Source: Halobellus sp. MBLA0158
GTDB taxonomy: Archaea; Halobacteriota; Halobacteria; Halobacteriales; Haloferacaceae
NCBI RefSeq assembly: GCF_041477585.1
Contig: NZ_JBGNYA010000001.1
Location: 620,001-684,000, forward strand
Length of the DNA: 64,000 bases
Direction of reading: 5' to 3'
Shown: piece after piece, positions 34,502-62,756 of the stretch
Position numbering within the stretch: the stretch's first letter is position 1
Layout of the letters: the number at the start of each line of letters is the position of its first letter
Made by a program: the position numbers and the translations under genes
The notes under the pieces: generated by a model
Seen by the model: the letters and a program-made list of their open reading frames with translations, nothing else
Told to the model about the DNA's origin: nothing
The model's database searches: none

Positions 34502-35740
34502 TCACTGTAACTTATCCAAACGCTCCAACTTATCCAAAACCCCGTTCTCTTCCAACTCAGACAATTTCTCCAACACGTCTTGCTTTTCCTCACGGCTTTT
34601 CTCTTCTCTCAAGTTGAGGGGGCGTCCGCAGCTACGGCACTCACTGTACTGCGATTGATTCTCCGAACCGCAGAACGAGCATTCAATTTTCTGGTCTTCT
34701 TCTGTACTTGAGTCAAGACCGTATTGGTCGCGGATTGCTCTGTTGACGTCGTCGTTGTTGAGATGGACATAGACTTTAGCGCGGTCACTTCCTGGCTTCC
34801 AGCCGGCGAACTTGTTCAACTGCTCATACCCCATAAACGTCGCAACCTCAGTCAAACGAGTATGCCGCAAATTGTATGGAGTGCGTTTATTCTCCGGAAT
34901 ATCAGCCTTTTCACACGCATTTTTGAATCCGCGTCGGAAAGCATCGTACTTCATCCGATCCGCCAAATCAGGCTCATAGGCGCAAGATTCGTCGTGGTGG
35001 TGCGGGATCTCACCACAGTTACTGCACTGTTGCTGCTCAGTCTTAACCCACAGAGGAGCATTAGGATCCTCAATATCGCCAGGCTCCCCGCCCAAGGGAT
35101 GAGACGCGATCCACTCTCGTAGAGGTCTCCCCGATCGGACAAGCTGGTTCGTCCTGTCTGGCGTTCCCTTCGCACCTTCCAAGTAGATAAAATCGCCTTT
35201 CTCGTTGGACGTGAAGTCTCCAATATTACGGGAAAGTAGTTCACCTGGCCGCGCCGCAGACTCGTACAAAACGTAGGTAAAGGCTCTATCACGGGTGCTC
35301 GTAAAGCTCCGAACCAACTGTTTCAGTTCATCTTCCGTAAACAGGTCTTCACGGGAGACAGAGGTCGGCTTATTGCTTTTGTGAACCGAAAAGAACTGGA
35401 CCTTTTCGGGTGCCTGACCCTTGTTCTTCGCCGTGTACAGCTTCTTGACCGCGCAACGGAACTTGTGCTTCGTTGCCTCCGCGTAATCACTACGATTCAA
35501 GGCCGCGACGACATTCTTGATTTCTTGCTCAGAAGCACCGTCTATAACAAAATCTTCAGGCGCAAACTTATCGAGAATGGTTTTCCAAGCGTAGGCATAC
35601 CGCTGCTGTTGGCTTTCGCCGATGCCTTCTGCCGCAGCGTGGTTGATCAAGTCGCGGACTGCCTCGAAATTCTCCTGAGAGACCTCGTCTTCCAGATTTT
35701 GAAGAGCGTTAGATACGTTGATGTATTCGGTCGTGGTCAT
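34502..35740 (-). CDS. Tyrosine recombinase with internal and C-terminal zinc-binding motifs
   Basis: A 412-residue integrase-fold protein. The N-terminal core-binding region ends near 125; the catalytic domain has SAARPGELLSR (catalytic Arg), GAKGTPDRTNQLV (Lys), YNLRHTRLTEVATFMGY (box-II Arg), AGWKPGSDRAKVYVHL (Trp/His and Tyr nucleophile). Two insertions are unusual: a zinc motif CSNCGEIPHHHDESC inside the catalytic domain and a zinc ribbon CSFCGSENQSQYSECRSCGR near the C-terminus, followed by a charged coiled tail. In the usual H-x-x-R the His is Tyr here. It may integrate, excise or resolve the element. Start at MTTTEYINV. Confidence 0.85.
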   Translation of the reverse strand: MTTTEYINVSNALQNLEDEVSQENFEAVRDLINHAAAEGIGESQQQRYAYAWKTILDKFAPEDFVIDGASEQEIKNVVAALNRSDYAEATKHKFRCAVKKLYTAKNKGQAPEKVQFFSVHKSNKPTSVSREDLFTEDELKQLVRSFTSTRDRAFTYVLYESAARPGELLSRNIGDFTSNEKGDFIYLEGAKGTPDRTNQLVRSGRPLREWIASHPLGGEPGDIEDPNAPLWVKTEQQQCSNCGEIPHHHDESCAYEPDLADRMKYDAFRRGFKNACEKADIPENKRTPYNLRHTRLTEVATFMGYEQLNKFAGWKPGSDRAKVYVHLNNDDVNRAIRDQYGLDSSTEEDQKIECSFCGSENQSQYSECRSCGRPLNLREEKSREEKQDVLEKLSELEENGVLDKLERLDKLQ

Positions 35741-36023
35741 AGTTCTTCGAATCACGTAATGGATAGAGAAGGAAGGAGAGGAAACACAGAGATTCGAATG
35801 ATGGCTGGTCCACTGAAGCGTTGATTGAGTTGGCCGGTGGGAACCCTTGCCGGCGTTCTCTTGCCCCCGCTCTCACTTGGTGTCCATTGAACCGTTCGTA
35901 GATTGGACTCGCAGACCCTGATACGAACAGTTAAGAGGTCGTTTTTTACTTTCTCTTGTCTTCTCCTTCCTTCGATTGGGTTTTCAAGAGAAAATTAGTG
36001 TTTTACTTTTAAATTAATTTGCT
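35741..36023. other. Intergenic region between the recombinase and the TraB-like gene
   Basis: About 280 bases with no supported gene. GCCGG (35832-35836) and CCGGC (about 35849-35853) enclose a GGGAACCC core, a small dyad (GCCGG, TGGGAACCCTT, GCCGGC). A T-rich stretch (TTACTTTCTCTTGTCTTCTCC) follows further right. It might hold the promoter of the recombinase or a recombination site; nothing firm. Confidence 0.25.
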
Positions 36024-37477: not shown

Positions 37478-39484
37478 CTACAATGACAAGCTCTCCACGT
37501 CGTTGAACCGTCGAAGCAGCCGAAACACTACCTGATCTGGATCTAATCCGTTCTCCTGTAGTCTTTGCTGTAATCCGTCTTGGATTTCTTTGTTCCGGCA
37601 GGCAATCCAGATAGTGAAGTCTCGGTTGAGGTGTTTCTCTACGTGTTGGATTTCTCTTGGTTTGTCTCCCATTGCGACTTCGACCGCTAACTCCGTGTTT
37701 CCCATATTGATGTAGATGTCGGCATCGAACTTTTCTAGGAAGGCGTCCCAGCCGGCTTCCTCGAACAGGTCTCGTATCTTGTGCTGCCAGTATTGGTGGA
37801 TGATTCCGCCACGACCCCCGTGTTTCACTTCCAGATCTAGATCTTTTTCAGCGTATTTTCGGCCTTGTTCGGTGAGTTGCAGCAGCTTTCGCTTGTCCTC
37901 TTGTTGGTGGATTCTGCGTTCAACTGCTACGCCCTCGTCGACGAGCTCGTTCTTCGCCTTGTTTCCCTTGTACCGACTGGAAAAATCGCTGTATCTCTCG
38001 GTCAGTGGTCGGAACGGATCGTTGACAACGTCTTCGAGAAGTCTTTCAGCACTGCTGGAGAGCTGTACCTCGCTGTTTGGATCACGGGGGTCGCTTGGAA
38101 TCTCCGATCCTTGTTCTTCGTTGCTGTTGCTTGGTCCGATTTTTTCTCGGAAGTCGGGGGTGGTTTCTCTTGGACTATGGCTGAGTTTTTCCCAGTTCTC
38201 GGCTTGCTGTTTTCGCAGCTCTTTGTCTGAGACATTCTTGTCTAACCGGTAGTTGTCGAGTTTGACCGGTACCGGACTACGGTTTCCGACCTGGACAACT
38301 GCTTCACCTGTATCGAGTTCCTGTGCAAATTCCATCTGCCGCTTAGACAAATTCATCGACTCCGCGACGGCTTGGAACTGCTTCTGATCACCAGTAGACA
38401 GCAAAGCTTTGGTGTAGGTATTGGCCTTGATCGAGTCCGTCAACTTCGACGCCTCTTGGTCTGCTACGACTAGTCCTTCACCGAATTCCCGCATCTTCGC
38501 CGTCAACTCATCAATCTCCGGAATACCCGACGCATCCTGTCTTTCTTTGTAGACACTGAAGACTCGTTTGCCTTCATCCAAGAAGAAAGCGTGATTCAAA
38601 CCACTGTCTCGCTGGTTCTGAGCTAACCGGTACTCGTAGACGTATGCGAACAAGATCTCCATCAAAAAGTTCTGGACATCCCGAGAGAGGCCGTCAAACT
38701 CGAAGACAACATCCCGATCCAGAAGCTCTTCCGCTCCGTATCCCTTGCTGCAGTCGAGCACTGTTCCTGCAACCAAGTTCATCGACTCCAACCGGTTCAA
38801 CAGTGTGTCGCGGTAATCCGACGCTTTCCGTACATAATTCAACCTCTCTTTCCTGATCAACAGCTCCAGTTCGTGCAAACTCGGAAACGGTTCCTCAAAA
38901 CTATCAAACAAGCCGTACAACCGGTATAGCTCGATGATTTTCTTCAACAGGTAGTTTTTCGATCCGCTCAACAACGCAGTGCTATGCCCAAAGATCTCAG
39001 CGAAAACCTGCGCCCAACGCCTCGGTGAAACATTTCTTGGCGGCCTCAACGGATTCAACTTGATCTCAGACCAAGGCAGCACCAACAAACCATCCAAACC
39101 CTCTACAAGATGGCGGTAATCCTGCTTCAAATCAAAAGCCCAAAACGGCCTACCCAACTCCTCCATCAAGTTATAGAACAACGTCGTCTTCCCCGAACCC
39201 GACTGCCCCACAGCCAACAGATGCTTGGTAAAATCGTCCTGTGAAAGACCGAATGAACCGCCTCGAAACGTCTCACCCAAAGAAACTTCACCAAACCACG
39301 TTCTCTCATCAAACGGGTACTGCCAGTTCTGCACCGACTTACCGATCACTGCTTTCAACGCCGCCTCCTGCAATCCATCGTTCTGAGAAATTCCCGCAGC
39401 TAGAACCAATCGCCGAACACTGGGGTCCTCAAGCAAACCCCTTTGATCCGCTACGCTCAGAAGCCGTTCCCCAGAATCCACCAC
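37478..39484 (-). CDS. HerA-like AAA ATPase with C-terminal nuclease-like domain
   Basis: A 668-residue protein. Residues ~85-400 are a HerA/TraG-type motor: Walker A AVGQSGSGKTTLFYNLMEEL, Walker B LNHAFFLDEGKRVFS, then an Arg-finger region. After a low-complexity linker (~430-480) comes a C-terminal domain with KFDADIYINMGNTELAVEVA followed by MGDKPREIQHVEKHL: an Asp and VEVA in the positions of a PD-(D/E)XK motif, with Lys replaced by Ala, so the nuclease may be inactive. Such fused proteins occur widely on archaeal mobile elements and may pump, anchor or process element DNA. It starts with two GTG codons. Confidence 0.8.
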   Translation of the reverse strand: MVDSGERLLSVADQRGLLEDPSVRRLVLAAGISQNDGLQEAALKAVIGKSVQNWQYPFDERTWFGEVSLGETFRGGSFGLSQDDFTKHLLAVGQSGSGKTTLFYNLMEELGRPFWAFDLKQDYRHLVEGLDGLLVLPWSEIKLNPLRPPRNVSPRRWAQVFAEIFGHSTALLSGSKNYLLKKIIELYRLYGLFDSFEEPFPSLHELELLIRKERLNYVRKASDYRDTLLNRLESMNLVAGTVLDCSKGYGAEELLDRDVVFEFDGLSRDVQNFLMEILFAYVYEYRLAQNQRDSGLNHAFFLDEGKRVFSVYKERQDASGIPEIDELTAKMREFGEGLVVADQEASKLTDSIKANTYTKALLSTGDQKQFQAVAESMNLSKRQMEFAQELDTGEAVVQVGNRSPVPVKLDNYRLDKNVSDKELRKQQAENWEKLSHSPRETTPDFREKIGPSNSNEEQGSEIPSDPRDPNSEVQLSSSAERLLEDVVNDPFRPLTERYSDFSSRYKGNKAKNELVDEGVAVERRIHQQEDKRKLLQLTEQGRKYAEKDLDLEVKHGGRGGIIHQYWQHKIRDLFEEAGWDAFLEKFDADIYINMGNTELAVEVAMGDKPREIQHVEKHLNRDFTIWIACRNKEIQDGLQQRLQENGLDPDQVVFRLLRRFNDVESLSL

Positions 39485-40822: not shown

Positions 40823-43800
40823 TTAAACCGATCCTCTTCTTGAAAACAACAATACTGCAGCTCCTACGAGCGCAATGATCGTAGCTAACGGTCCGAAGCC
40901 CGGTGCCTCCGATCCTGTCGTCTCTGCAGGTGTTGTCGAAATCGGCTCTTCCGTAGTAGTGGTAGTTGTTGAAGTATTCTGAACGGTCAGCGTTGCAAGT
41001 TGATCTCCAACGATCAGGGTGTACTCTCCTGGTTCCTCAAACGTAGGTAGATATACGAGAGTCGCGTTCTCTCCCGGTTCAAGATTATCTACTTGGCTAC
41101 TAGAACCAATACCTTCCTGTAGAGTACCGTCGCGGTAGACTTCAAGAGTATATGATGCGTTTGTCGTTTCTGTACCATTATTGTAGACCACAGCCTCCAC
41201 TCCAACACTATCGCCTTCATCTATCGTGGTCCGCGTAAGAGTTAGATCAGTGATTTCCGTAGAGATCTCACCGTCATCCGATCCTCCACCACCCGGACCG
41301 GTACCGCCGCCACCATCGGACGAATCACCGTCAGTCGAAGTAACGTTTATCGATGCTACTTGACGCTGTATCCCTGTGAAGCGGTCAGTAACCCGGATCT
41401 GATAATCACCGGCAGAGATATCGGTATCTGCAAGATCGAAACTAAACGCTGCTTCGCCTTGTCCATCAAGTGTGTAGACTTGACTCACAGCAACAGAGCT
41501 GCTGGACTCATTGACCAGTCCAATACGGATTTCCCGGGCAGCCACGTTCGACTCAATTGTACCGCTAAGTGTCGCCGACGTATTCACAGTTGAAGAGTCA
41601 ACCGACGCCGCAAACTCCAGCCGCGCCACTTCGAACGTCGAGGTTTCAACCCCTGCGACACTGACCTGATAATCACCGGTTGAAACTGCCTCTGTATCCA
41701 GCAACGCGATCCGGCTATCACTACCCGTCGACAGTTCCTGAACCAGCGTCCCATTCTGAGAGATCGTCACATCCGAGTTAACCGTATCTGTAACAACTGC
41801 AAGTATTGAACCTCTGTACACGCCTACATTATCGCCTGAGTGGACAGAAACCGGTGCCCGAGTAACAGACACGTTCTGCGGAGTATCCAACGGCACATCC
41901 TCGGTACTAACAATACCATCTTCAAGACGGAGCGTCAGCTCCGAGATGATAACTTGATCAAGCTCGATGACAGCACGACCACCATCTATCTGCACAGTTG
42001 TGTTCGTAGTATCAATCTGTGCCCCATCAGCGTACAACTCAAAGTTGCCGCTAAGATTCTGCACCGGTTCTGAGAACGCTACTTCGATCGCCGGAGACCC
42101 ATCCGCCTGCCTGTACTGCACAGCACTTCTGACCTCTGGCGACGTTTCTGTAGTAGTATTGGTTGAACTTACAGTGATCTTAGATAACCAGAACTGGCTT
42201 TCAGCTTCTGTCGCACCCTGATCACCTCCCAGCACGAACTCTCCCAGCCCTGTCTGAACCGCAGAATAGACTGTAGTGTTCTCAGGAACGGAGTAATTGC
42301 CAACCCCCATTCTATCTCCACTATCTGAAAGCCTGAGAATCTCCTTGTCCTCAGTTACAGCTGAAATGTTTCCGTCAAATACCGTTACATCAATCGGCGG
42401 CCCAGTATCGTAGGTACGATCCCACTCAACGTTGTTACTCGGAGTGACGCGGACAACCCGGAGCGAACCAGTCGTCTCGTTAGTACCGGTAACGAGGATA
42501 TCCCCATCAGGCAGTGTTTGTAGCTGCGGCGAAGACAGATTGGGGACGGTCCGTTCCCACCTTTTGCTTCCATCAGCTTGGAGAGCGTACAGGTAGGTCG
42601 GCTCAGAATTGAAGCCTGCGACACTGAACACTGCTCCATCACCCAGACCTGCTCCACTGTAAGATAACGCACCGTACGAATCGTTGGTTATCGACAGAGT
42701 CCGGTTCCACTGCTCAACCCCACCTGAATCCGTCCGGATAAACCTCGACTTACGATCATCACTACAACAAGTATTACCAGCTAAGAACATAGCGCTACCA
42801 TCACTTTCGACAATAGCCTCGTAGGTACCTCCAGAAAGATCGTCGGCACGCTGCCAAACAACACTACCGTTGCTGTCGAGTTTGACGAACGTATCTATAC
42901 CTACAGTGACGAAACCCCCGTCACTGGTTCTAATAATATCCTTACTCGTGTCAACATAGCCAGGGTCTGCAGTAGTAATCCATTCCCGATTTCCATCAGA
43001 CCCAGCTTTGAGAACAGTTACATTAGTCTCTGACCCAGAGTCGCTTACATTAGCATCCGTAACACCCGCAAGTACAACTCCTCCGTCACCAGCTTTAATC
43101 AGTTCTCCAAATCTGGAGGTGGCTGCCTGATCAGTCTCGTAACTCCGACTCCAATTACTGGTAGTGGTAAAGGAGACAGTCCGAGTAGAGAAATGCGGAA
43201 CATTGAACGCAACCCAAGAACTCTGGCCCGGCCCACCAGATTTGTTGACCACAAACGGTTGTTCCTCACCATCAAGATACATCGTAAGATCGTCGATATC
43301 CTGTGACGCAGATATCGCTTGAGTCTGAAGATAGAAAGTCACATTCTCAGCATCATCAGGCGCAGAAATAGCGATCGAATAATTCGTCGACGACGAACGG
43401 AGAACATCAACAGAGGTTTTGTCACTGCTTGCAACAGATTTCTCAACCCTGATTTGACCGGCGAGATCCGCATCCACTTGATCAGAACCCAGCCTAACCG
43501 TCTCAGAGAACGACGCGATATTCGAGACGTTTTCGACAGGAGTGACGGAAAGGGCGTCATCAGTGAAGGATGTACTGATATTTAGACTTGCACCACTTGG
43601 CGTCTCCAGTGATACAACGTATCCGTAGTCACCCGCCGGAAGTACAGACTGCGAGATATTCGTTCGGAACGAGTCCGTATTGTTGTCAACGCGTAGCGTA
43701 CGGGTTAGTATAGGTGTCGCTTCCCACGTTTTGGCCGTATCGTAAACCCTGAGGATAGCCTCTGTATCTCGCGGGAAGAACTGTTTTGGCATCGAAACAG

Positions 43801-46800
43801 TGATAGTATCGTCGTTAATCGATGTCGTCGGTTCGCCTTCATAGCCGAAGATAAGAGGCCTCGAAGCCGTCGCAGCGACGGCTTCGCCATCTTCGCTACG
43901 TAATTTGATTGAATAGTTTATGAGACCGCGCTCGGTCGGAATAGACCCGCTTTCGACCGTCAAATTGTACTTTTCGACGCCAGTGGATGTGTAGCGATGG
44001 AGTTTCGGACTCCCAGAAACTGGGTCTCCCTGTGAGCCGAAGAACAAGAGCGCAAACTCGCTATCGTTTGCTATCGTGACGGATTCTGTGACTGAAGCGG
44101 TGAACTGAGGTTGTCCTTCTCGAACGAATACGAACTGGTAATTCGACCCATTATCGAAGGCCAGTTCTGTGTCTGATTCTACTGCTACAAGGTTTGATAT
44201 GACCGTTGGATCCTTTCTTGGATTTGAAATCGTGTAAAGAACATCTGGATAGGTTAGTTCTAGCTCTTTGGGCGAATCGCTGTCTCCACCAGTATCTATA
44301 TCCCACGCAAGTACTGGATAATCGCTCGGTTTTGTTACCCAGATGTTATCGAAGTCAAGCCCGCTCATATTCGATGCTGCCGCCGATCCCTGCATTTCAG
44401 CCGTCGTTAAACCGATCGCACTCCCAGCGGACGTAGTCTGACCTGTTGCTTGTTCATCCCAGTATGAATCCATAACAGTCCCAGAGTTACGACCTACCAA
44501 TCCTCCGACTTGAGTGTCTCCAGTTACATATCCAACAGCGAATGAATCTCGGATTGTGGCCCCGAGGTTACGTCCAACGAGCCCACCAACCTGTGTAGAA
44601 CCAGTCACATTTCCAGACGCCTTCGCGCTTTGAATTACGCTGTCGTTCTCATTTTCTCCGACGAGCCCACCAACCTGTGTAGAACCAGTCACATCACCAG
44701 ACGCTGTGACATTCTGAATCGTGCTGTTGTGAACAGCGCTTCCGACAAAACCACCGGTTACCTCGGAACCGTTGACGTTTCCTGTCGAATACGATGACTC
44801 TACTGTTGCATTATCTGAATTAATTCCAATCAGGCCACCAGTGAAATATGTTCCGGAAACATTCCCAGTCGCATATGATAAGGTCACTCTACCTCCTTGT
44901 GAAAGTGAATTGAAATTATCGTTCCTGCCGATCAGTCCGCCTACTTGGAACGTTCCATTGACATTTCCTGTAGCGTACGATGCTATTACTGTAGTGTTAT
45001 CAGAATTATACGCAACAAGTCCTCCCACCCACCCAGAACCATTGACGTATCCTGACGCATTTGACGATGTTACTATACCGTTCCCGTCATTGTATCCGAC
45101 AAGCCCACCTATGACCTCTGTCCCGGAAACATTCCCAGTCGCATACGAGGACTTTACTGCACTGTTCTCATTGTTACTTCCGACAAGACCACCGATGAGT
45201 TCTGTCCCGGAAACATTCCCTGTCGCATAGGATGACTCTATATTAGCATTATCATAGGTAGAGCCGACAAGACCACCAACTCTATCTACTCCGGTCACTT
45301 TTCCAGAAGCTCTTCCATCATAGAGAGTACTGTTGTTATAAACATCTCCAGCAAGTCCGCCAACAGAATAAGAACCGTTGACATCCCCGGATGCCGATAC
45401 ATTCTGAAGTGAGCTATGATCCTTAGCATCTCCGACTAACCCGCCCAGAGAATAGGTGCCAGTTACATTTCCGGACGCTGTGGCGTTCTGAATCGTGCTG
45501 TAGCTGGCACTAACTCCAATAAGTCCGCCCAAGCCAACAATACCCTCCACGTTGCCGGACGCCGTTATATTCCGAAGTGTGCTATTACCTTCAGCATTGC
45601 CGACAAGCCCGCCTACAGCATAGTAAGAGCCGGTTACATTTCCAGATGCTGCCGCACTCTTGATCGTGCTGTTGCTGTAAGAGCTCCCGACTAAGCCGCC
45701 TACAAAGTCTGAACCGTTCACATCGCCAGACGCTGCCGCACTCTTGATCGTGCTGTTGCCTATGGTGTCTCCGACAAGTCCACCTACATCATTCTCGAAG
45801 CCCATTACATTTCCCGAGGCTGTCGCACTCTTGATTGTGCTGTTGTACCTACTCTGTCCGACAAGTCCTCCAACTTCGCTGGAGCCAGTTACATTCCCGG
45901 ATGCTGTGACGTTCCTAAGTGCAGTATTGTATATAATTCGTCCTACAAGTCCACCTACATTGTCAGAGCCGTTCACATTCCCCGATGCCGTTGCGCTCTG
46001 AATCGTGCCGTTATCCCTAGCTTTTCCTACAAGCCCCCCTACGAAGTAACTAGATCCGTTCACATCGCCAGACGCTGCCGCACTCTTGATCGTGCTGTTG
46101 CTAGCACTGAATCCGACGATTCCACCCACAAAGCTAGACCCAGTCACAGTTCCAGATGCGGAGATATTCTGAAGTCTGCTGTTATCCTCAGCCTCTCCGA
46201 CAAGCCCCCCGACGCTACCGGATCCGGTCACGTTTCCGGAGGCTATCGCACTCTTGATCATACTGTTATCAACGCTTCCGACAAGTCCGCCCACATCGTT
46301 AGAACCGGTAACGTTTCCAGAGGCTGTCACATCCTGAATCGCGCTGTTGGCGTAAGCATTTCCAGCGAGTCCACCCACTGAGAAACCACTACCCTGTACA
46401 TTCCCAGAGACTGCGACATTCTGAACTGTGCTGTTGCCAACACTACCGGCGAGTCCGCCTACATCTTCTGAACCAGTTGCTCCGAGTTGCGCAAGCGAGA
46501 CATATTCAATCGTTGCTGACTCAATATAGCTAAAGAGTCCAATGCCACTTTCATTCGGACGTTCGATCGTAAGTCCAGTTACTGTATGATTGTTTCCGTC
46601 TAGCGATCCAGAGAACGAACTTACGGGATCAAATCCACGCTCATTACCCCACTGCGCAGTTCTGGAGGCATCAATATCGGCAACTAATTCATAATGCGCG
46701 TTCGGGTCATCTTCCATCGCCTGTAGTTCCGATGCGTTCGAGACCTGGTACGGATCAGCCCGCGTACCACCCCCAGGCAAGTCACTTGCATCAATATCCA

Positions 46801-49800
46801 CTAAAGATCCATCTCCCCGGTCGTCTCCGCTATCGTCAGGAATAGATATCGTATCAGATTGTCCAGATCCACCATCATTTCCACCTGAATCTTCCGCAGT
46901 GCGTAGGATTGCAGTATAATCTCCTGACCCATCAACAGAATAATTTGAAGTATAAGTATGGTTATCTACGTCTCTTTCAATAAAGTCACTTCTGCGTAAA
47001 TTCGTTACAACTGTTGTGCCGCGGATTAGATCAACGCTAATTCTGGAAAGTGGCTCTGAGGAGGTGAGATTAATTCTGAGAGCACTTCCATCGGTTTTTG
47101 AAAGAGAGATAGAGGGTGCAGATTCATCTACATCTTCTTGTACTGAAATTGTAGAACTGGTAGTGTCGACAAGCCCGCTACTATCAGTAACAGTCAGTGA
47201 AACTACCTTTTCACCTGCACTATTGAATGTATAATCTGGGCTGATACCTGTCGCCTCAATACTTCCATCCCCATCAAAATCCCACTCATATGATTCAATA
47301 GATCCGGACGGATCTTCTGATTCAGATGCATCAAAGCTTACAGTAGAACCAATGGATGGGCTTTGCGGCGAGTAGCTAAAGGACGCAGATGGTCCAACTA
47401 CTGTTGTGAAACTCCAGACAGGACTCCTTGTGGTTAATCCGTGCTCATCTGTTGCTACAATTTGCCAGTAGTAGACTGAACCTCTCTCTAAATTGCTTGG
47501 AGAGTAGGAAGACTGTGACTGGCCACTAGCTACTTGTTCATCAGGAGTTGGATCACCTTTCTCCAGATATACATCGTACGAGACAGCATCTCCATCAGGA
47601 TCATCACCGCTCCATTGTAGGACGGTATCTGTGCCTACAGAGTCCGCTCCGTCGCCAGGTGAAGGATTAGATGGTTCCTCGGGAGGGTTGTTTTGGTTGA
47701 TCGTTATTGATTCGCTCAAAGCGTGCCTCTCATTGCTTGCATCAATTACTTCAGCAGAGATCGTATGGTCGCCCTCAGTAAGACTTAGTGAGACAGATTC
47801 CTCGTCTGATTCGCCAGCATCAACGTGGTAGGTTTCTGTCTCCACGATATTCCCATCAGCTTTGAACCGGATAATGTAGTTAGCCTGTGTTGAACCAGTG
47901 TTCTCCATACTAACACTCGCAGAAACAGGATTGCCAGCTGAACCTGTGTCAGGAACACTGAGTCCATTAATATCTAGGTCCGGGCCGAAATCATCTTCCA
48001 CATAGAGGGTTGTCTCATCAATAACGCACCCGTCAACATCTGCAGTATCTGAGACAGTAACTGTGTACTCATCAGCACCTTCTAATTGAAGATCAGTACT
48101 TGACAGGCTGCTTCCCTGTTCTTCCTTAATAACGTCGACTTGACCATCATCCGGGTCTCCTTTGTATACATACCACGAGTAGCCTTCTATTCCAGTATCG
48201 CACGTATCCTCTTCTATGTGCGAGACATCAAGTGTGACCTCTTCATACGGACGGGGCTCAATCGGAAGTATAGACATTTCATCCTCGGGCGGCGAATGCT
48301 CTACATCAACCGTCGCTGATGTCTCAAAAGTATCCCCAGAGATCGAATGGCGGACAATGGCATCAACGGTATATGTTCCTGGCTCGCGGAATAATGCACC
48401 TCCCTCCAACTCCAAATCAGTAGCAAATTCTTCTCCCTCATTGGCATTATCCTCTTCAACGCCAATTACCGTACCACGCTCATTCACAACTCGGAGATCA
48501 TAATCACTCTCTTGCACCCCGTCAATGTGCTCAACATAATTCATATACCCGAACTCCAACTGGTTATCCTTGATCTCCATAGGTCCATCCCGATCATCAT
48601 TCTCGAACGAAATATCCGAAATAGAGATCGAACTATCTCCACTACTCGTCGAGAAAGTCCAGACACCGCTGGAACTCGTAGTTTGACCATCATCCGCAAC
48701 AACTCTCCAATAGTACGTTGTACCCCGATCAAGTCCAGAAACCGTTACCTCAGAAGAGGAAGTTGTCGTATAAAATCCAGGATCAGAGTTTGCCCCGAAG
48801 TACACATTATACGATACGTCACTGTTACTGGATCCAGACCAAGACAAAGTCACATCTCCGGAGAAGCCGATTGAATCATTTTCAGGAACCGGATTAGAAG
48901 GCGCTGAAGGCGAATCACTTCCCGAACCACGTGTTGTGAAGCTCCACAGGTTGCTTTCTACTGTATTACCCTGTCCATCTTCTGCAACTATTTTCCAGTA
49001 GTATGTGGTCCCAGCTTCCAAACCCGCAGGATCATAACTGGTATCAGACTGATCTTCAGCAACTAATGCCGGTGTCTGGTCTCCTTTTTCTAAATATATA
49101 TCATAAGATACGCTATCCGGGTTGTTTGATTCCCATTCTAGGATACTATCGGTGGGAATATTTGAAGCGGCATCAGTGGGGCTGGGATTTGAAGGTGGTT
49201 GGAGAGATGACGATTCAACCACATTCAAGTTGACCGATTTTGAAATCGAGCCTCTCTCATTGTCCACTCCAGATACGGTAACTGACAGAGAATGGCTGCC
49301 TAACGAGGTATCTTCAGATGTTTGAATTTCGGCAGCTGCCTGATTCTGGTATCCACTACTTAGATCCCCGATTGGAAGTACTTTGAAATCTCGGTCACTG
49401 CCGTTGAACGCCAATTCAGATTCAGAATTAAATGAAACTTCGCCTGTAACCGCAGCCACAGGTGCACCTGTACCTTGAACGGTGACAGGTAGAGTTACAT
49501 TGTTACCTTTGGTTACAATTACTTCGCTCGGCACATCAACAGATAATGTGCTTTCTTCTGTAATAACACGAACAAGTCCTGCATAGTTCTCAGTTGGATG
49601 CAAAGGGTCAATTCCGTTTCCATCAACGGTGATTTGCCAATCCCCGGTAGATTCTGGATCTTGTATACTTATTTTCCTCACATTATTGGTATCACCGTCT
49701 GCGCAATACTTACTTGGGTCATCAACAGGCCCCACACAAACATCAATATCATTCACCAATGTGTCAGAGGAACTGATTGACGACTCTGGATCAAGCCAAG

Positions 49801-51697
49801 TGGTCGATACAACCACTCTCTCTGCATTTGGCGAAACTGAAAAACTATAAACATCCGTCTCATCAGCCACTCGCGTTAAACTACCACTGAACCGGTTCGC
49901 TGTAGATTCATAGCTATTATTATAGATCGCGTTGTGAACATTTGTTCCACCATATCCGGATGCATAATTTAGGCGATTTCTTACTGGGTGAGTCGTACCA
50001 ATAATTGCAGCCTTAATCTCAGCTGCTCCAGCCTCAGGATATGCCTGCTTGTACATTGCCGCTACCCCAGCTACGTGCGGAGCCGCCATACTCGAACCAG
50101 CCTTCGTCCCGTATTCAGAGGCACCAGGTGGAGAAACGACAGGAGCCGTAATATACTCCCCAGGCGCAACTACATCCGGCTTAGTCCGTCCATCAACGGG
50201 GAGATCAAGATTATTGGAATCAGATACTTCCCCTAGCCGACTAGCCACACCATAAGGTTCGAACTCAGAAGAGCCATCTAACGATGAGCCAACGGTAAGT
50301 GCATTCTTTGCCAAACCAGGAGACGTGACATTTTCAACTATTCCATACTCTTCGGAATCATCCCCATAATTCCCACCAGAGAACAGAACAAGAGTATCTG
50401 GGTGATTATTAGCCCATTCATCAGTAGAGTGAGCCCCTTGATCATATCCACCGCCACTATCGTGACCCCAACTATTGCTGATAATAGTTGCACCAGCCTG
50501 TTCTACTTTATTATATAGATCGTCATACCCTGGTCCAATGATATTTCCGCAATTATTCACCTCAAACCCTCCAGTATCGTTGAAAATGCGCGAAATAACT
50601 AGTGTAGCTTCGGGGGCAACCCCGGTTAGGGTCCTACCTTCGTGAGTTCCTTCGCCTGCGACAGTACCAGCAACGTGAGTTCCGTGGTCATTGTCGATAC
50701 CTGTATACGGCGCCTCAGGATCTACATCGCATCCTGCCCAATCATAGGAGTCAATAATATTAATCCCGGAAAAATGTGGATGATCGGAATCAATACCGGT
50801 GTCAATTATACCTACTCTTACTCCTTCCCCGTCATACTGTGAATCAACTTTGTGGGCGCCAACTAATCGGCGTCCTTCGGCCACGCTTGGATTTGGTTCC
50901 TGGTATTTTTCGATCCACGCAACCTTGTTTATTGATTGTAACTGTCTGATCTGAGAAACAGTTAGACTGCCTCGATAGGTGGTATTGTCAATACGACTTA
51001 AATTCGAATAGGATAACCTCTCAAAAGTTCTGATACTCACTTCATACTCTCCAGTAGCATTAGATATTGTAGAATTCAATGAGGGAGATATCTTCCATTT
51101 TGGTTTAATATCTATGATTGAACGAACAAATTGAATTTCATTTATTGAATTGATTTCTTCTGGAGGAATTGCAACATAGTATGTTCCATCAGTTACTGTT
51201 TCTACGAAAACAACGTCTTTACTACGAAGCTCACTGATTGCGTCTGTTGGCTTGTCTGCATAGAACTGTAGAATTGTCCAGTAAGTATCATTTGAAGACG
51301 TGTTAGAGATATTATCCTGTTCTATTTGAACGCCTTCTTTTGGAGTCACATTACCTGTACGAAGGGGAATTACGTACGAATTTGATTCAGAGTCTTCAGA
51401 AGTAGATGCTATAGAAGCACCTGTCAATCTCTCATTCTTTGGCTCGTTAACTTCGGTTAGATTGCCCATCAGAGTCTTCGTACTATTATTGGAATCGGGT
51501 TCGGTAGAATTTGATTTAGAACTCTCTACTGGTGGATTACTATCCGCTGTTGTGGATTCAGTATTACTTTCAGAAATATGGTTATCGTTAATTGATTTCC
51601 CCGGATCAGCGATCGCCGTACCTCCGACCGGTGCCGGAACTGTCGATAGCACCAGCATTAAAGCCAAAAAGAGCGCACACAGGCCCCTTTCACGCAT
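40823..51697 (-). CDS. Giant cell-surface subtilase with FN3, PKD and 24 GLUG repeats and a PGF-CTERM anchor
   Basis: A 3624-residue exported protein. It starts with a Sec signal (LCALFLALMLVLSTVPAPVG), then a Thr/Ser/Asn-rich linker and a pro-region. The S8 protease has Asp299 (VGIIDTGIDSDHPHF), His338 (NDHGTHVAGTVAG) and Ser536 (GSSMAAPHVAGVAA). FN3-like domains follow (about 834-1022 and 1343-1430), a PKD domain (about 1436-1510), 24 GLUG repeats (about 1746-2423), a strand-repeat region that may be a beta-propeller (about 2856-3110), surface beta domains, a CARDB-like domain (about 3480-3585), a Thr-rich stem and a PGF-CTERM tail. NxS/T sites are very common, suggesting N-glycosylation. 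The tail should be processed and lipid-anchored by archaeosortase. Probable role: adhesion and proteolysis at cell contact. ATG at 51697; TTG at 51703 is an alternative. Confidence 0.9.
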   Translation of the reverse strand: MRERGLCALFLALMLVLSTVPAPVGGTAIADPGKSINDNHISESNTESTTADSNPPVESSKSNSTEPDSNNSTKTLMGNLTEVNEPKNERLTGASIASTSEDSESNSYVIPLRTGNVTPKEGVQIEQDNISNTSSNDTYWTILQFYADKPTDAISELRSKDVVFVETVTDGTYYVAIPPEEINSINEIQFVRSIIDIKPKWKISPSLNSTISNATGEYEVSIRTFERLSYSNLSRIDNTTYRGSLTVSQIRQLQSINKVAWIEKYQEPNPSVAEGRRLVGAHKVDSQYDGEGVRVGIIDTGIDSDHPHFSGINIIDSYDWAGCDVDPEAPYTGIDNDHGTHVAGTVAGEGTHEGRTLTGVAPEATLVISRIFNDTGGFEVNNCGNIIGPGYDDLYNKVEQAGATIISNSWGHDSGGGYDQGAHSTDEWANNHPDTLVLFSGGNYGDDSEEYGIVENVTSPGLAKNALTVGSSLDGSSEFEPYGVASRLGEVSDSNNLDLPVDGRTKPDVVAPGEYITAPVVSPPGASEYGTKAGSSMAAPHVAGVAAMYKQAYPEAGAAEIKAAIIGTTHPVRNRLNYASGYGGTNVHNAIYNNSYESTANRFSGSLTRVADETDVYSFSVSPNAERVVVSTTWLDPESSISSSDTLVNDIDVCVGPVDDPSKYCADGDTNNVRKISIQDPESTGDWQITVDGNGIDPLHPTENYAGLVRVITEESTLSVDVPSEVIVTKGNNVTLPVTVQGTGAPVAAVTGEVSFNSESELAFNGSDRDFKVLPIGDLSSGYQNQAAAEIQTSEDTSLGSHSLSVTVSGVDNERGSISKSVNLNVVESSSLQPPSNPSPTDAASNIPTDSILEWESNNPDSVSYDIYLEKGDQTPALVAEDQSDTSYDPAGLEAGTTYYWKIVAEDGQGNTVESNLWSFTTRGSGSDSPSAPSNPVPENDSIGFSGDVTLSWSGSSNSDVSYNVYFGANSDPGFYTTTSSSEVTVSGLDRGTTYYWRVVADDGQTTSSSGVWTFSTSSGDSSISISDISFENDDRDGPMEIKDNQLEFGYMNYVEHIDGVQESDYDLRVVNERGTVIGVEEDNANEGEEFATDLELEGGALFREPGTYTVDAIVRHSISGDTFETSATVDVEHSPPEDEMSILPIEPRPYEEVTLDVSHIEEDTCDTGIEGYSWYVYKGDPDDGQVDVIKEEQGSSLSSTDLQLEGADEYTVTVSDTADVDGCVIDETTLYVEDDFGPDLDINGLSVPDTGSAGNPVSASVSMENTGSTQANYIIRFKADGNIVETETYHVDAGESDEESVSLSLTEGDHTISAEVIDASNERHALSESITINQNNPPEEPSNPSPGDGADSVGTDTVLQWSGDDPDGDAVSYDVYLEKGDPTPDEQVASGQSQSSYSPSNLERGSVYYWQIVATDEHGLTTRSPVWSFTTVVGPSASFSYSPQSPSIGSTVSFDASESEDPSGSIESYEWDFDGDGSIEATGISPDYTFNSAGEKVVSLTVTDSSGLVDTTSSTISVQEDVDESAPSISLSKTDGSALRINLTSSEPLSRISVDLIRGTTVVTNLRRSDFIERDVDNHTYTSNYSVDGSGDYTAILRTAEDSGGNDGGSGQSDTISIPDDSGDDRGDGSLVDIDASDLPGGGTRADPYQVSNASELQAMEDDPNAHYELVADIDASRTAQWGNERGFDPVSSFSGSLDGNNHTVTGLTIERPNESGIGLFSYIESATIEYVSLAQLGATGSEDVGGLAGSVGNSTVQNVAVSGNVQGSGFSVGGLAGNAYANSAIQDVTASGNVTGSNDVGGLVGSVDNSMIKSAIASGNVTGSGSVGGLVGEAEDNSRLQNISASGTVTGSSFVGGIVGFSASNSTIKSAAASGDVNGSSYFVGGLVGKARDNGTIQSATASGNVNGSDNVGGLVGRIIYNTALRNVTASGNVTGSSEVGGLVGQSRYNSTIKSATASGNVMGFENDVGGLVGDTIGNSTIKSAAASGDVNGSDFVGGLVGSSYSNSTIKSAAASGNVTGSYYAVGGLVGNAEGNSTLRNITASGNVEGIVGLGGLIGVSASYSTIQNATASGNVTGTYSLGGLVGDAKDHSSLQNVSASGDVNGSYSVGGLAGDVYNNSTLYDGRASGKVTGVDRVGGLVGSTYDNANIESSYATGNVSGTELIGGLVGSNNENSAVKSSYATGNVSGTEVIGGLVGYNDGNGIVTSSNASGYVNGSGWVGGLVAYNSDNTTVIASYATGNVNGTFQVGGLIGRNDNFNSLSQGGRVTLSYATGNVSGTYFTGGLIGINSDNATVESSYSTGNVNGSEVTGGFVGSAVHNSTIQNVTASGDVTGSTQVGGLVGENENDSVIQSAKASGNVTGSTQVGGLVGRNLGATIRDSFAVGYVTGDTQVGGLVGRNSGTVMDSYWDEQATGQTTSAGSAIGLTTAEMQGSAAASNMSGLDFDNIWVTKPSDYPVLAWDIDTGGDSDSPKELELTYPDVLYTISNPRKDPTVISNLVAVESDTELAFDNGSNYQFVFVREGQPQFTASVTESVTIANDSEFALLFFGSQGDPVSGSPKLHRYTSTGVEKYNLTVESGSIPTERGLINYSIKLRSEDGEAVAATASRPLIFGYEGEPTTSINDDTITVSMPKQFFPRDTEAILRVYDTAKTWEATPILTRTLRVDNNTDSFRTNISQSVLPAGDYGYVVSLETPSGASLNISTSFTDDALSVTPVENVSNIASFSETVRLGSDQVDADLAGQIRVEKSVASSDKTSVDVLRSSSTNYSIAISAPDDAENVTFYLQTQAISASQDIDDLTMYLDGEEQPFVVNKSGGPGQSSWVAFNVPHFSTRTVSFTTTSNWSRSYETDQAATSRFGELIKAGDGGVVLAGVTDANVSDSGSETNVTVLKAGSDGNREWITTADPGYVDTSKDIIRTSDGGFVTVGIDTFVKLDSNGSVVWQRADDLSGGTYEAIVESDGSAMFLAGNTCCSDDRKSRFIRTDSGGVEQWNRTLSITNDSYGALSYSGAGLGDGAVFSVAGFNSEPTYLYALQADGSKRWERTVPNLSSPQLQTLPDGDILVTGTNETTGSLRVVRVTPSNNVEWDRTYDTGPPIDVTVFDGNISAVTEDKEILRLSDSGDRMGVGNYSVPENTTVYSAVQTGLGEFVLGGDQGATEAESQFWLSKITVSSTNTTTETSPEVRSAVQYRQADGSPAIEVAFSEPVQNLSGNFELYADGAQIDTTNTTVQIDGGRAVIELDQVIISELTLRLEDGIVSTEDVPLDTPQNVSVTRAPVSVHSGDNVGVYRGSILAVVTDTVNSDVTISQNGTLVQELSTGSDSRIALLDTEAVSTGDYQVSVAGVETSTFEVARLEFAASVDSSTVNTSATLSGTIESNVAAREIRIGLVNESSSSVAVSQVYTLDGQGEAAFSFDLADTDISAGDYQIRVTDRFTGIQRQVASINVTSTDGDSSDGGGGTGPGGGGSDDGEISTEITDLTLTRTTIDEGDSVGVEAVVYNNGTETTNASYTLEVYRDGTLQEGIGSSSQVDNLEPGENATLVYLPTFEEPGEYTLIVGDQLATLTVQNTSTTTTTTEEPISTTPAETTGSEAPGFGPLATIIALVGAAVLLFSRRGSV
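44430..46462 (-). repeat. Array of 24 GLUG repeats inside the giant gene
   Basis: About 84-bp units encode about 28 residues each: VGGLVGxxxxNSTIxxxxAS then GNVTGSxx. Units differ at many positions, so this is an old, selected protein repeat and not a recent DNA duplication. One unit (near 44.9 kb) is longer by 6 residues. GLUG repeats stack as a beta-helix and occur in surface adhesins. Confidence 0.85.
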
Positions 51698-54139: not shown

Positions 54140-55141
54140 CTACGCTTGTATCTCGTGTTGCTGCATTAGTTCTCTCAGGGATTCGTCTTCGCCTTGCCAG
54201 TACTGAGTGTCTTCCTGTGAGTCAATCCGTTGTTGCACACGGCGTTCTACTGTTTCCCGACCCAAATATTCAGGATCAGGTATCTCGCTGTACCCGTTTT
54301 CAAGTAGTTTTGAGGCAGATTCGAACCCGTGGTCCAGTTCGTAGTCAGGGATAGAGTCGTCACTGTAGTGTGTAAGTGCTCGTGTAGCCGCGTTATACGT
54401 CTCCCACAACGTCGGATTATCCGGATCCGCAACTTCAGCCTGAAGAGCATTGAGTAGGTCGGGTACAGGCTGCTCCAAGTACTCACCAACCCCATTCTCC
54501 AGGAGAACCAGTAATGCTTCATCCTGATTCAACAGCTCCCGGTTCTGGGCCTGCGAAAGCCTGTGTTCGATCTCTGCCGGCGATTCGAGGACAGCGTCAA
54601 CCGCGTTGTACGTCAATCCTGGTTGGAACTGTTCACTGTGACTCTGCTCGAAATGCAGGTCGGTGACAAAAGCCATCATACCATTACTACAGACCTGTCG
54701 CTCCGCACCAACGTCGTACTTCAACGCGTGAAAACCCGAGTGTCCACTCCTCACTTTCAATCCTAGGTCGATCGGGTCATCCTGGGATGCGTAGACTGTT
54801 GCTCCGTCAAAATCGAGTTTAGCACTCATCTTATGGGCTGTAGGAGACAAGGAAACACTGCCTCGCACATCCAAGTTCTGATCACTGTGCCGGTCGACAG
54901 CATCACCAACCGTCTCTAAAATATCACCGTACTGGATAACGTTGTAGAACTCTTCGTTGCTGGAAACAACTCCCGTAGCACGTCCATCATCCGTCCACAA
55001 ACTATCACGGTAACGAACACGCTCCCACTCACCCATTTCTTCGTGGTGAGCATACACGTCCTGCCTCTCCACCTCCGGCAACTGTTCCGCGGTTTCGTAT
55101 AATTCGTCTAAATCATCGAAACTGTAGCGTTCAGATTGAAT
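54140..55141 (-). CDS. DUF932-family protein with possible ATT start
   Basis: Recognisable as DUF932 by KVRSGHSGFHALKYDVGAER and QVCSNGMM, domains common in plasmids, phages and integrative elements with unknown role in DNA metabolism. The standard frame would begin with TTG at 55081 (313 residues). But 20 clearly coding codons precede it (QSERYSFDDLDELYETAEQL) without ATG/GTG/TTG. An ATT at 55141-55139 stands 6 nt after a strong ribosome site AGGTGAT. An ATT start (333 residues) is therefore proposed. Confidence 0.7.
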   Translation of the reverse strand: MQSERYSFDDLDELYETAEQLPEVERQDVYAHHEEMGEWERVRYRDSLWTDDGRATGVVSSNEEFYNVIQYGDILETVGDAVDRHSDQNLDVRGSVSLSPTAHKMSAKLDFDGATVYASQDDPIDLGLKVRSGHSGFHALKYDVGAERQVCSNGMMAFVTDLHFEQSHSEQFQPGLTYNAVDAVLESPAEIEHRLSQAQNRELLNQDEALLVLLENGVGEYLEQPVPDLLNALQAEVADPDNPTLWETYNAATRALTHYSDDSIPDYELDHGFESASKLLENGYSEIPDPEYLGRETVERRVQQRIDSQEDTQYWQGEDESLRELMQQHEIQA

Positions 55142-58491: not shown

Positions 58492-59595
58492 ATGAAACGA
58501 AGTAATTCTTTGTACGTGCGTGTCGCGCTCGCTGCCCTGCTCGCGACGTCGTTACTGGCGGTGCCGGTCGCTGCCCAAGATAGTGGTCAAGAGGATGAGA
58601 GTGATGATGGCGGTAATACGATCATCGAGATAGACGTCGGCGATATTGTCGACGCGATTGAGGATTTGGCCGACGACTTTCAGGACTTCGCCGGCGACTG
58701 GGACAACACGTTACAGGAGGTGTTGACCGCGGTCCTGTTCCGGCCGTTCCGAACACTTGGACAGCAAACCCTGGAGTCATTGACCTACCTGTTCCTGAAC
58801 ACTCCTTCCGTCGATCCGAATCCAGCAGTCGAAGAAGTTCACCGCGAAGTCCTGCTCGTAACCACCTTGCTATCTACCGCGGGTTTTGCCGTGGCGGGAA
58901 TCCTGTATATGGTTGGTCCGGTGGTTGGCGTCTCTTACAGCCAAGTCCGATCCATACTGCCGCGGCTGCTGTTAGCACTGATTTTCTCGACCGTTTCTCT
59001 GCCGCTGCTTCAACTAGCGGTCGATCTCACGGATGCGTTGATTCTGGCTTTCGCACCCGAACAGCTCTCGATGTCGTTCTCCCAGTTGTTCGGATTCAGT
59101 ATCGGGTTGGTCTTGGTCTGGGTGGTGAAGGCTACGCTGTTGTTGGTGTTGGCGGCGTTATTCGTGATCAGAGATGTCTACATCCTGTTCGTCGCCGCAA
59201 TCAGCCCGTTAATCGCGTTGATGTGGAGCCTGCCGTCGACCAAGAAGTACGCGGACACGTTCATCTCTGGTTGGATCGCCGCACTCCTCATCGCACCACT
59301 CGACCTGCTAGCAATCAAATTCTCGATGGCGCTCCTCCAAGGAAACGGAGCCACTGGAATACAGAGCGTGTCAAACTGGATACTGGGCATCGGCAGCCTG
59401 GTACTCCTACTACTGATCCCACGACAACTCTGGAAAGCCTCACAATCCACAGTCGGGAAAGCCAACGAGCTTGGTTCAGAGTTGAAAAAGCGGTTCAGGA
59501 ACAGTCAAACCGGCAAAAAAGTGAATCCGGTACATCGGTACCGAGACCAGAATATGTGGCGTCGTCGAAACCGAAGCTTCCAGGAGGATGACTGA
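58492..59595 (+). CDS. VirB6/TrbL-like polytopic membrane protein
   Basis: A 367-residue protein with a signal peptide (VALAALLATSLLAVPVAAQD), an acidic external stretch (about 30-60) and at least six helices. The central part (SFSQLFGFSIGLVLVWVVKA, then FVIRDVYILFVAAISPLIAL) is typical of VirB6/TrbL channel proteins: helices, then a cytoplasmic loop with MWSLPSTKKYADTFISGWIA. The C-terminus is basic. It would be the inner-membrane core of the conjugation channel. Starts 6 nt after the VirB2-like gene. Confidence 0.75.
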   Translation: MKRSNSLYVRVALAALLATSLLAVPVAAQDSGQEDESDDGGNTIIEIDVGDIVDAIEDLADDFQDFAGDWDNTLQEVLTAVLFRPFRTLGQQTLESLTYLFLNTPSVDPNPAVEEVHREVLLVTTLLSTAGFAVAGILYMVGPVVGVSYSQVRSILPRLLLALIFSTVSLPLLQLAVDLTDALILAFAPEQLSMSFSQLFGFSIGLVLVWVVKATLLLVLAALFVIRDVYILFVAAISPLIALMWSLPSTKKYADTFISGWIAALLIAPLDLLAIKFSMALLQGNGATGIQSVSNWILGIGSLVLLLLIPRQLWKASQSTVGKANELGSELKKRFRNSQTGKKVNPVHRYRDQNMWRRRNRSFQEDD

Positions 59596-59598
59596 AAA

Positions 59599-61776: not shown

Positions 61777-62756
61777 ACTCGATCAAGCACCGCCTCCTCA
61801 ACAACCACATCGTCCTTACTGAGGACGAAGCAGAAACTCTCTCACAGCCCTCTACAAACCACTACACGGTAGAAGTCAAACCCGCAGACCCATCCACCTC
61901 CAACATTCCCGAGACACTCACAGAGTTCACCGACGCAATCACCGAATTCCAAACCAGTTATCTCGGACTCAAAAACACGTCACCCACCACAATCTTCGAA
62001 ATACTGCGACCACAACCCAACCAACTCCGGTTCCAATACCACGCACCTACCAAAAGACTGGAGCGGAAAATCCGGCTCCACCTCTCCAACCAGATACCCA
62101 AAGTCGGATTCCAAGAGGGTACCACAGAACTACCAGTCGGAGAAGGCGGTACTGTTGGCGGCGGATTCCTTACTACCGGATACAGCAGTTATCATCCGCT
62201 CCGGTACGAGTTCGACTCACCGCCTAACAACGCTGTAGTTTCAGCTCTGCACCGACACGCTACCCAGAGCACACGGTACCTGATCCAGATCCTGTTCAAG
62301 CCCGTAGCCGGCCACTCACTGAAACAGTGGCTGTGGAGAAAACGGGCGTACCACCACCGCAACTACCTGAAAAAAGAGAAAGACAGCTTGTGGAGAACGG
62401 TACAGCCCACCCGGAGAGAACGAAGACAGGCACAGGAGATCGATGACAAAGCCGGCGAGCCCCGGTACCGGACCAGTATCCGGTTCCTCGTAATCAACGC
62501 CGCCGACTACACACCTAGCCGAGTCAAAGAACTGGCCGGAGCCTACAACACGTTCGAAAACCCGGAAACCGGGCAATACCTTGACGCAGTCACCGTAACC
62601 CGGCTCCAGCGAAAACCCTTTCTCCGGTTCGCAGAAGCCGTCGGACAACGCCGTTTCTCCGGTTGGACACGTAGCTTCCAAACCAGTGCGAAAGAACTCG
62701 CAGCACTGCTCTCACTCCCAGACAAACAACAAGAAAACATCCAGTACAACCGATGA
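61773..62756 (+). CDS. Unknown protein between VirB4- and VirD4-like genes
   Basis: A 327-residue soluble protein. There is an alpha/beta N-terminal region (PSTNHYTVEVKPADPSTSNI, then LRPQPNQLRFQYHAPTKRLE), a Gly-rich patch (GEGGTVGGGF), and a central basic helical part (QWLWRKRAYHHRNYLKKEKD). The later part, with the strand TSIRFLVINAADYTPSRVKE, resembles the N-terminal region of archaeal conjugation ATPases that has here become a separate gene. ATGA overlaps on both sides prove coupling; it probably binds the VirD4-like ATPase. Confidence 0.6.
   Translation: MNSIKHRLLNNHIVLTEDEAETLSQPSTNHYTVEVKPADPSTSNIPETLTEFTDAITEFQTSYLGLKNTSPTTIFEILRPQPNQLRFQYHAPTKRLERKIRLHLSNQIPKVGFQEGTTELPVGEGGTVGGGFLTTGYSSYHPLRYEFDSPPNNAVVSALHRHATQSTRYLIQILFKPVAGHSLKQWLWRKRAYHHRNYLKKEKDSLWRTVQPTRRERRQAQEIDDKAGEPRYRTSIRFLVINAADYTPSRVKELAGAYNTFENPETGQYLDAVTVTRLQRKPFLRFAEAVGQRRFSGWTRSFQTSAKELAALLSLPDKQQENIQYNR

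What the first reader, a model, noticed from the sequence alone, without database searches (positions are those of the whole stretch)
40823..51697. A 3624-residue surface protease/adhesin carried on an integrated element
A secreted subtilase with an intact triad (Asp299, His338, Ser536) is joined to FN3-like, PKD, 24 GLUG repeats, further surface beta domains and a PGF-CTERM anchor. At 10.9 kb it is about a quarter of the visible element. Giant protease-adhesin proteins are known from Nanohaloarchaeota (the SPEARE proteins, proposed to act in host contact). Finding a related layout as cargo of a haloarchaeal conjugative element suggests a weapon, mating-contact or host-recognition protein. The link to SPEARE is inference from layout.
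Basis: partly seen in the sequence, partly recalled or inferred. Interest (0 to 1): 0.88.

Follow-up and report, generated by a model that had tools for sequence, protein, structure and literature searches.

The report
Mobile-element-borne giant protease-adhesin surface protein
A salt-loving archaeon carries, inside a 50-kb element that looks able to move between cells, a gene for one enormous cell-surface protein that joins a protein-cutting enzyme to a long sticky-looking stalk; relatives of the element carry a cell-fusion protein with similar giant surface proteins beside it, so the protein may help cells touch and mate, though this is untested.

Summary
In detail: one intact 3,624-aa frame (minus strand) with signal peptide, subtilase with all three catalytic residues, FN3, PKD, about 20 GLUG units and a PGF-CTERM-like anchor. 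The element is now bounded: about 49.9 kb, GC 0.48 in a 0.69 host, between the end of a tRNA-Thr gene and its partial copy. Thirteen relatives of its VirB4/VirD4 cluster were found in sampled haloarchaea; none carries this protease. The SPEARE link fails: the restriction and laminin-G domains that define SPEARE are absent. The protein looks chimeric: prodomain, KP-43-type protease and following beta domain match Methanosarcinales, not haloarchaea, whereas the GLUG-to-anchor half matches haloarchaeal surface proteins, including this host's. Unexpectedly, two relatives of the element (one confirmed against PDB 7P4L) carry Fusexin1, and all five fusexin loci found have a giant surface-like gene within about 5 kb, two with GLUG modules. 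I favour a cell-contact protease-adhesin carried by a fusexin-type mobile element (probability about 0.4); an ordinary proteinase or barrier cargo is the main rival. New variant of a known kind.

The parts
22519..22562 (.). left attachment repeat (attL): 44-bp imperfect copy of the 3' half of tRNA-Thr(GGT); partner attR at L002:8413-8456 (window-frame 72413-72456, outside the window)
   Evidence: exact 17-bp and 15-bp blocks in register with the tRNA; GC step at both ends
24984..27073 (.). two Cdc6/Orc1-type initiator genes (24984-25973 minus, 26036-27073 plus)
   Evidence: conserved in most relatives
34502..35755 (-). tyrosine integrase, internal copy; a second integrase lies beside attR (window-frame 71091-72224 minus)
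   Evidence: both conserved in relatives
37478..39484 (-). HerA/DUF87-type ATPase, conserved backbone gene at one edge of the cargo zone
   Evidence: weak Pfam hit, E to 0.0 in relatives
40823..51697 (-). giant protease-adhesin gene, 3,624 aa
50966..51697 (-). signal peptide and prodomain (aa 1-244)
   Evidence: hydrophobic N-terminus; prodomain matches Methanosarcinales-type proteins (E to about 1e-11), no significant haloarchaeal match
49949..50830 (-). KP-43-type subtilase domain (aa 290-583); Asp299 codon 50801-50803, His338 50684-50686, Ser536 50090-50092
   Evidence: Foldseek best hit 1wmd KP-43
49208..49900 (-). post-catalytic beta domain (aa 600-830)
   Evidence: matches only Methanosarcinales-type and bacterial S8 proteins, E about 1e-7
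48638..49162 (-). FN3-like domains (aa about 846-1020; a further FN3-like stretch near aa 1373-1432)
47150..47392 (-). PKD domain (aa 1436-1516)
44708..46777 (-). GLUG module with its N-terminal cap (aa 1641-2330)
42098..43147 (-). predicted all-beta repeat domain, propeller-like by strand pattern only (aa 2851-3200)
   Evidence: 47% identity to a same-family haloarchaeal protein; low-confidence model
40847..40918 (-). PGF-CTERM-like anchor (aa 3594-3617)
   Evidence: TIGR04126 23.6 vs 24.5 bits
51800..52384 (-). 194-aa predicted lipoprotein 102 bp upstream, same strand; possible operon partner
   Evidence: sequence; no Pfam family; no homologue in the relatives
54140..55081 (-). DUF932 gene, conserved backbone gene at the other edge of the cargo zone
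58492..64000 (+). transfer cluster: polytopic VirB6-like protein, VirB4 (59599-61776), conserved 327-aa protein, VirD4/TraG (62753-64681, runs past the window)
   Evidence: cluster conserved in 13 relatives

Best explanation
The gene is cargo of an integrated, probably conjugative, haloarchaeal element of the same family as the fusexin (Fsx1) integrated mobile elements. It encodes an exported protein that stays tethered to the cell surface by its C-terminal PGF-CTERM-type anchor. The GLUG, FN3, PKD and Ig-like stalk projects the N-terminal KP-43-type protease away from the cell. Most likely use: the stalk binds neighbouring cells and the protease trims S-layer or surface proteins at the contact, helping the element's VirB4/VirD4 machinery reach a recipient. 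Shown: reading frame, domains, catalytic residues, element limits, shared transfer cluster, fusexin in sister elements, giant surface-like genes beside every fusexin gene found. Inferred: export and anchoring, protease activity, substrate, and the role in contact.
For: Intact frame and domains with all catalytic residues conserved. Closed 49.9-kb element with two integrases and a VirB4/VirD4 cluster. Gene composition fits the element, not the host. The transfer cluster is shared with two fusexin genomes: G281, Fsx1 confirmed against PDB 7P4L at E 8e-88 on the same contig, and G007, Fsx1 about 70 kb from VirB4 in continuous low-GC DNA. All five fsx1 loci have a surface-like ORF of 964-2265 aa within about 5.4 kb, two with GLUG modules related to this one, one with laminin-G and Ig-like domains. 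Precedent: large Ig-like proteins encoded in plasmid transfer regions promote bacterial conjugation by aiding cell contact (PMC8730810).
Against: No expression or functional data. This element itself has no fusexin. None of the 13 sister elements carries this protease, so it is not needed for transfer; in three sisters a comparable zone holds a type I restriction enzyme, which suits general cargo. The fusexin-neighbour pattern is post hoc, n = 5, and rests partly on a hydropathy filter. Giant PGF-CTERM subtilases and GLUG proteins are common on haloarchaeal chromosomes outside such elements.
Confidence: 0.4

Rival explanations
1. Host-beneficial surface proteinase: an anchored scavenging or surface-remodelling protease that the element carries as ordinary accessory cargo, like plasmid-borne lactococcal cell-envelope proteinases (analogy from my own knowledge).
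For: Anchored giant S8 proteins of 1,600-3,063 aa with PGFG tails are common in haloarchaeal chromosomes, so the type does not need an element. Cargo in sisters varies widely.
Against: The protease type here is not the common haloarchaeal one, and a roughly 1,980-residue GLUG-to-anchor stalk is more than a nutritional enzyme needs.
Confidence: 0.28
2. Barrier or competition protein: it attacks or blocks foreign cells, viruses or competing elements at the surface (weapon, or surface exclusion).
For: Sisters carry defence cargo at a comparable place: type I restriction HsdR in three. This element has other defence-like genes, a truncated PbeC and PDC-like genes.
Against: No toxin or effector domain found by Pfam, and the C-terminus ends in an anchor rather than a cargo domain.
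Confidence: 0.17
3. SPEARE-type host-contact protein related to nanohaloarchaeal giants, as proposed by the first reader.
For: Same broad layout: large, extracellular, serine protease plus adhesion domains.
Against: No type III restriction part, no laminin-G, single C-terminal PGF-CTERM-type anchor instead of an internal membrane segment. The GLUG-to-anchor half matches haloarchaeal proteins.
Confidence: 0.04
4. Neutral passenger: a chimeric surface gene captured by a recombination-prone cargo zone without a role in the element's life.
For: Mosaic build and different third-position GC of the two halves (0.35 vs 0.45, p about 1e-9); absent from sister elements.
Against: A 10.9-kb frame with intact signal, catalytic residues and anchor suggests selection.
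Confidence: 0.11

Closest known systems
Fusexin1 (Fsx1) integrated mobile elements of haloarchaea (PMC9259645)
   Same: XerC/D-type integrases, HerA, VirB4 and TraG/VirD4 genes; low-GC island; the whole transfer cluster is homologous to those of the Fsx1-carrying genomes G281 and G007
   Different: This element has no fsx1; it carries the giant protease-adhesin instead
Large PGF-CTERM surface subtilases of Halobacteriales
   Same: Signal peptide, S8 domain near the N-terminus, long beta stalk, PGFG-type C-terminal anchor
   Different: No GLUG arrays in the 20 examined; different S8 type (SLG rather than NSWG motif); mostly in higher-GC DNA
Methanosarcinaceae giant S8 surface proteins, e.g. Methanohalobium evestigatum pMETEV01 METEV_RS11550
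   Same: Collinear prodomain, KP-43-type catalytic domain and following beta domain (about 30% identity over about 600 residues, about 200 bits); one is plasmid-borne
   Different: No GLUG, no PGF-CTERM-type tail
KP-43 subtilase (PDB 1wmd)
   Same: Best fold match; NSWG-type motif
   Different: Free secreted enzyme without stalk or anchor
SPEARE proteins of Nanohaloarchaeota (PMC6642349)
   Same: Giant, extracellular, serine protease with adhesion domains
   Different: Lacks the type III restriction part, laminin-G and internal membrane anchor
Plasmid-encoded Big (Ig-like) proteins of R27 and IncA/C plasmids (PMC8730810)
   Same: Very large surface or secreted proteins encoded by conjugative DNA
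   Different: Bacterial, no protease domain, no shared sequence tested

Membership tests
SPEARE proteins | Type III restriction enzyme domains in the conserved intracellular part | tested here: not met
   No such Pfam match in 3,624 aa at E 0.1; definition from PMC6642349
SPEARE proteins | At least one laminin-G domain in the extracellular part | tested here: not met
SPEARE proteins | Transmembrane segment followed by a cytoplasmic region | tested here: not met
   Only hydrophobic stretches are at residues 6 and 3600
SPEARE proteins | S8 domain groups with SPEARE S8 domains | not testable with these tools
   No nanohaloarchaeal SPEARE sequence was reachable; the single genome-contig scan returned none
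Peptidase family S8, KP-43-like | Asp/His/Ser triad in S8 motifs | tested here: met
Peptidase family S8, KP-43-like | KP-43-type motifs (NSWG, LFxxGNxG, AKNxLTVG) and following beta domain | tested here: met
   Shared with 26-28 of 29 Methanosarcinales-type sequences, 0 of 27 haloarchaeal; fold search best 1wmd; post domain. Tree placement unresolved
Halolysins | Groups with haloarchaeal halolysins | tested here: inconclusive
   AU p 0.64 for the grouping, long branches; motifs absent from 10 of 10 halolysins and lowest profile score
PGF-CTERM surface proteins | PGF-CTERM motif, transmembrane helix and basic tail at the C-terminus | tested here: inconclusive
   GPGFGPLATIIALVGAAVLLFSRR-type tail present (read as APGFGPLATIIALVGAAVLLFSRRGSV); 23.6 bits vs cut-off 24.5
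Fsx1-type integrated mobile elements | XerC/D, HerA, VirB4, TraG/VirD4 signature genes | tested here: met
   definition from PMC9259645
Fsx1-type integrated mobile elements | Carries fsx1 | tested here: not met
   phmmer --max finds none in the element

The most novel reading that the evidence does not exclude
Haloarchaeal T4SS/fusexin elements encode their own mating surface: giant adhesins that hold cells together, paired in some elements with a fusogen and in this one with an anchored methanogen-type protease that opens the recipient's S-layer.
Probability: 0.17. Interest if true: 0.85.

Novelty: new variant of a known kind. Interest (0 to 1): 0.6.

Why it matters
How haloarchaeal cells recognise, touch and fuse during gene exchange is unknown, and Fsx1 has so far been discussed without partner proteins (no adhesin or surface-protein mention in the main text of PMC9259645). 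If giant surface proteins are regular companions of fsx1 and of this transfer cluster, the contact step becomes testable by deleting single genes. The protein also records gene assembly across archaeal classes: a methanogen-type protease module joined to a haloarchaeal adhesin on a mobile element.

Tried and rejected
SPEARE kinship (defining features absent). Tree placement of the S8 domain: long branch; AU test rejects neither haloarchaeal giants (p 0.12) nor halolysins (p 0.64), so I rely on motifs and on collinear pro/post domains. A 15,179-aa GLUG frame in G060 proved to be an artefact of an N run. Search for fusexin or this VirB4 in viral contigs and plasmids: nothing. G556 as a possible fragmented orthologue: shares only separate C-terminal modules, no S8. 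Models were modest (S8 pLDDT 59, beta repeat pLDDT 52), so the second was not searched for folds.

Full report
Observation. The frame is real: 40823-51697 on the minus strand, 3,624 aa, no internal stop. Pfam finds S8 (290-583), fn3, PKD and a strong GLUG signal. The GLUG units repeat every 28 residues, about 20 of them. Asp299, His338 and Ser536 are invariant in alignments with 19 haloarchaeal and 20 mostly Methanosarcinaceae subtilases. The C-terminus ends in a PGF-CTERM-like anchor just below the curated cut-off. The only strongly hydrophobic stretches are at residues 6 and 3600.

Element. The window lies at G000:C1:620001-684000. GC drops to about 0.48 from 22.5 to 72.4 kb, against about 0.69 on either side. 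The right end is a tRNA-Thr(GGT) gene, with an integrase beside it; the left end is a 44-bp imperfect copy of its 3' half. That gives about 49.9 kb, of which the giant gene is about 22%. The element holds two Cdc6/Orc1 genes, a second integrase, a HerA-like ATPase, VirB4 and VirD4/TraG. The giant gene's trinucleotide make-up correlates with the rest of the element (0.77) and not with the host (-0.14).

Sister elements. A search of 293 genomes of the order with VirB4 gave 13 clear relatives besides the window, E 1e-67 or better. In them the cluster VirB6-like, VirB4, 327-aa protein, VirD4 and a small winged-helix-like protein is conserved, usually with HerA, DUF932, Cdc6 and integrases. Cargo between or near HerA and DUF932 varies. 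Three elements carry a type I restriction HsdR, two a helicase, and one (G182) a 1,481-aa surface-type protein with PKD and CARDB. No sister element carries a related S8 giant; the one weak S8 match, in the G235 segment (403 aa), lies in its higher-GC edge. The exact layout is therefore not a fixed part of the element.

Fusexin link. A 653-aa protein in the G281 element matches Fusexin1 (PDB 7P4L) at 8e-88. Fsx1 elements are known to carry XerC/D, HerA, VirB4 and TraG/VirD4 (PMC9259645). A search of 243 genomes found full-length fsx1 in G104, G007, G211 and G123, and only a weak partial match in G192. In G007 fsx1 and the VirB4 cluster lie about 70 kb apart in continuous low-GC DNA. In all five fsx1 loci (these four and G281) a surface-like ORF of 964-2265 aa lies within about 0.8-5.4 kb. 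Two carry GLUG modules related to the window protein: G281 (Pfam 7e-12) and G007 (38% over the GLUG cap, 9e-22; below Pfam's threshold there). One (G211) carries laminin-G and Ig-like domains, and glycine-rich domains were seen in G104 and in a second G281 protein. Across the fetched segments I counted 9 such ORFs in 757 kb of low-GC DNA and none in 300 kb of high-GC flank. This is a post hoc observation on few elements, with a simple hydropathy filter, and the main text of the fusexin paper mentions no adhesin, protease or GLUG protein. The window element itself has no fsx1.

Origin of the parts. Against haloarchaea the S8 domain finds at best 94 bits in 392 genomes; against the whole phylum it finds 143 bits in family f19, the family that holds the Methanosarcinaceae. 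The stretch 107-826, that is prodomain, catalytic domain and following beta domain, aligns collinearly with a protein of G405 (222 bits) and with a plasmid protein of Methanohalobium evestigatum (210 bits). The best haloarchaeal match is 119 bits and covers the catalytic part alone. Prodomain and post domain searched separately match that group (and a few bacteria) and no haloarchaeal protein. Three motifs are shared with 26-28 of 29 sequences of that group and with 0 of 27 haloarchaeal ones. The best fold match is KP-43, 1wmd. A tree did not settle the placement. The other half is haloarchaeal: GLUG and post-GLUG modules match many giants of the family, one module is 66% identical to another giant of the same genome, and a 276-residue C-terminal stretch matches a 1,164-aa host protein. 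Third-position GC differs between the halves, 0.35 against 0.45. So the protein looks like a chimera.

Mechanism. Shown: the sequence features above. Inferred from established biology of signal peptides, S8 enzymes and PGF-CTERM anchoring: export, self-processing of the prodomain, anchoring at the membrane, and a stalk that carries the protease outwards. Inferred with less certainty: binding of other cells and cutting of S-layer proteins at the contact. Large surface proteins encoded by conjugative plasmids do aid mating contact in bacteria (PMC8730810). I put this at 0.4, against a scavenging or surface-remodelling proteinase (0.28), a barrier or weapon (0.17), a passenger (0.11) and a SPEARE-type role (0.04).

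Membership. It is not a SPEARE protein: three defining features tested and not met. It is an S8 enzyme of KP-43 type, and its element has the signature genes of the Fsx1 element family without fsx1. The novelty is the combination and context, not a new kind of domain.

Noticed in passing
L348 (G281:C4), L344 (G007:C1), L335 (G104), L338/L349 (G211), L341 (G123): Every fusexin (fsx1) gene found has a giant surface-like gene within about 5 kb; domains differ (GLUG, laminin-G plus Ig-like, glycine-rich).
   Followed up: partly
window 28241-29542 (-): Matches only the C-terminal 60% of PbeC (PADLOC 1e-96, profile 262-638 of 638): a truncated phosphorothioate-type defence gene.
   Followed up: partly
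window-frame 67432-69009 (L002:3432-5009, +) and window 30775-32055 (-): Candidate defence genes: PDC-S39-like and a PD-(D/E)XK protein of PDC-S26 type.
   Followed up: no
L096:5698-16065 and L316:1754-9778 (host genome): Two more giant GLUG/PGF-CTERM-type surface proteins in the same genome (3,455 and 2,674 aa).
   Followed up: partly
window 51800-52384 (-): 194-aa predicted lipoprotein just upstream of the giant gene, without known family; possible inhibitor, chaperone or partner.
   Followed up: no
window 55213-56853 (-): M48-family membrane protease with about ten hydrophobic segments beside the transfer cluster; counterparts in G182 and G198 elements.
   Followed up: no
G198:C11:3077-5245 and G239:C17:23845-25314: VirB4 genes of two sister elements each carry an in-frame stop, suggesting decaying elements.
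   Followed up: no
L127, Methanohalobium evestigatum plasmid pMETEV01: Plasmid-borne 2,251-aa S8 surface protein near a tubulin-like gene and a PGF-pre-PGF protein; closest annotated relative of the protease module.
   Followed up: partly
G060:C3 about 106768-140000: An apparent 15,179-aa GLUG frame is an artefact of masked bases (N run) in the record.
   Followed up: yes
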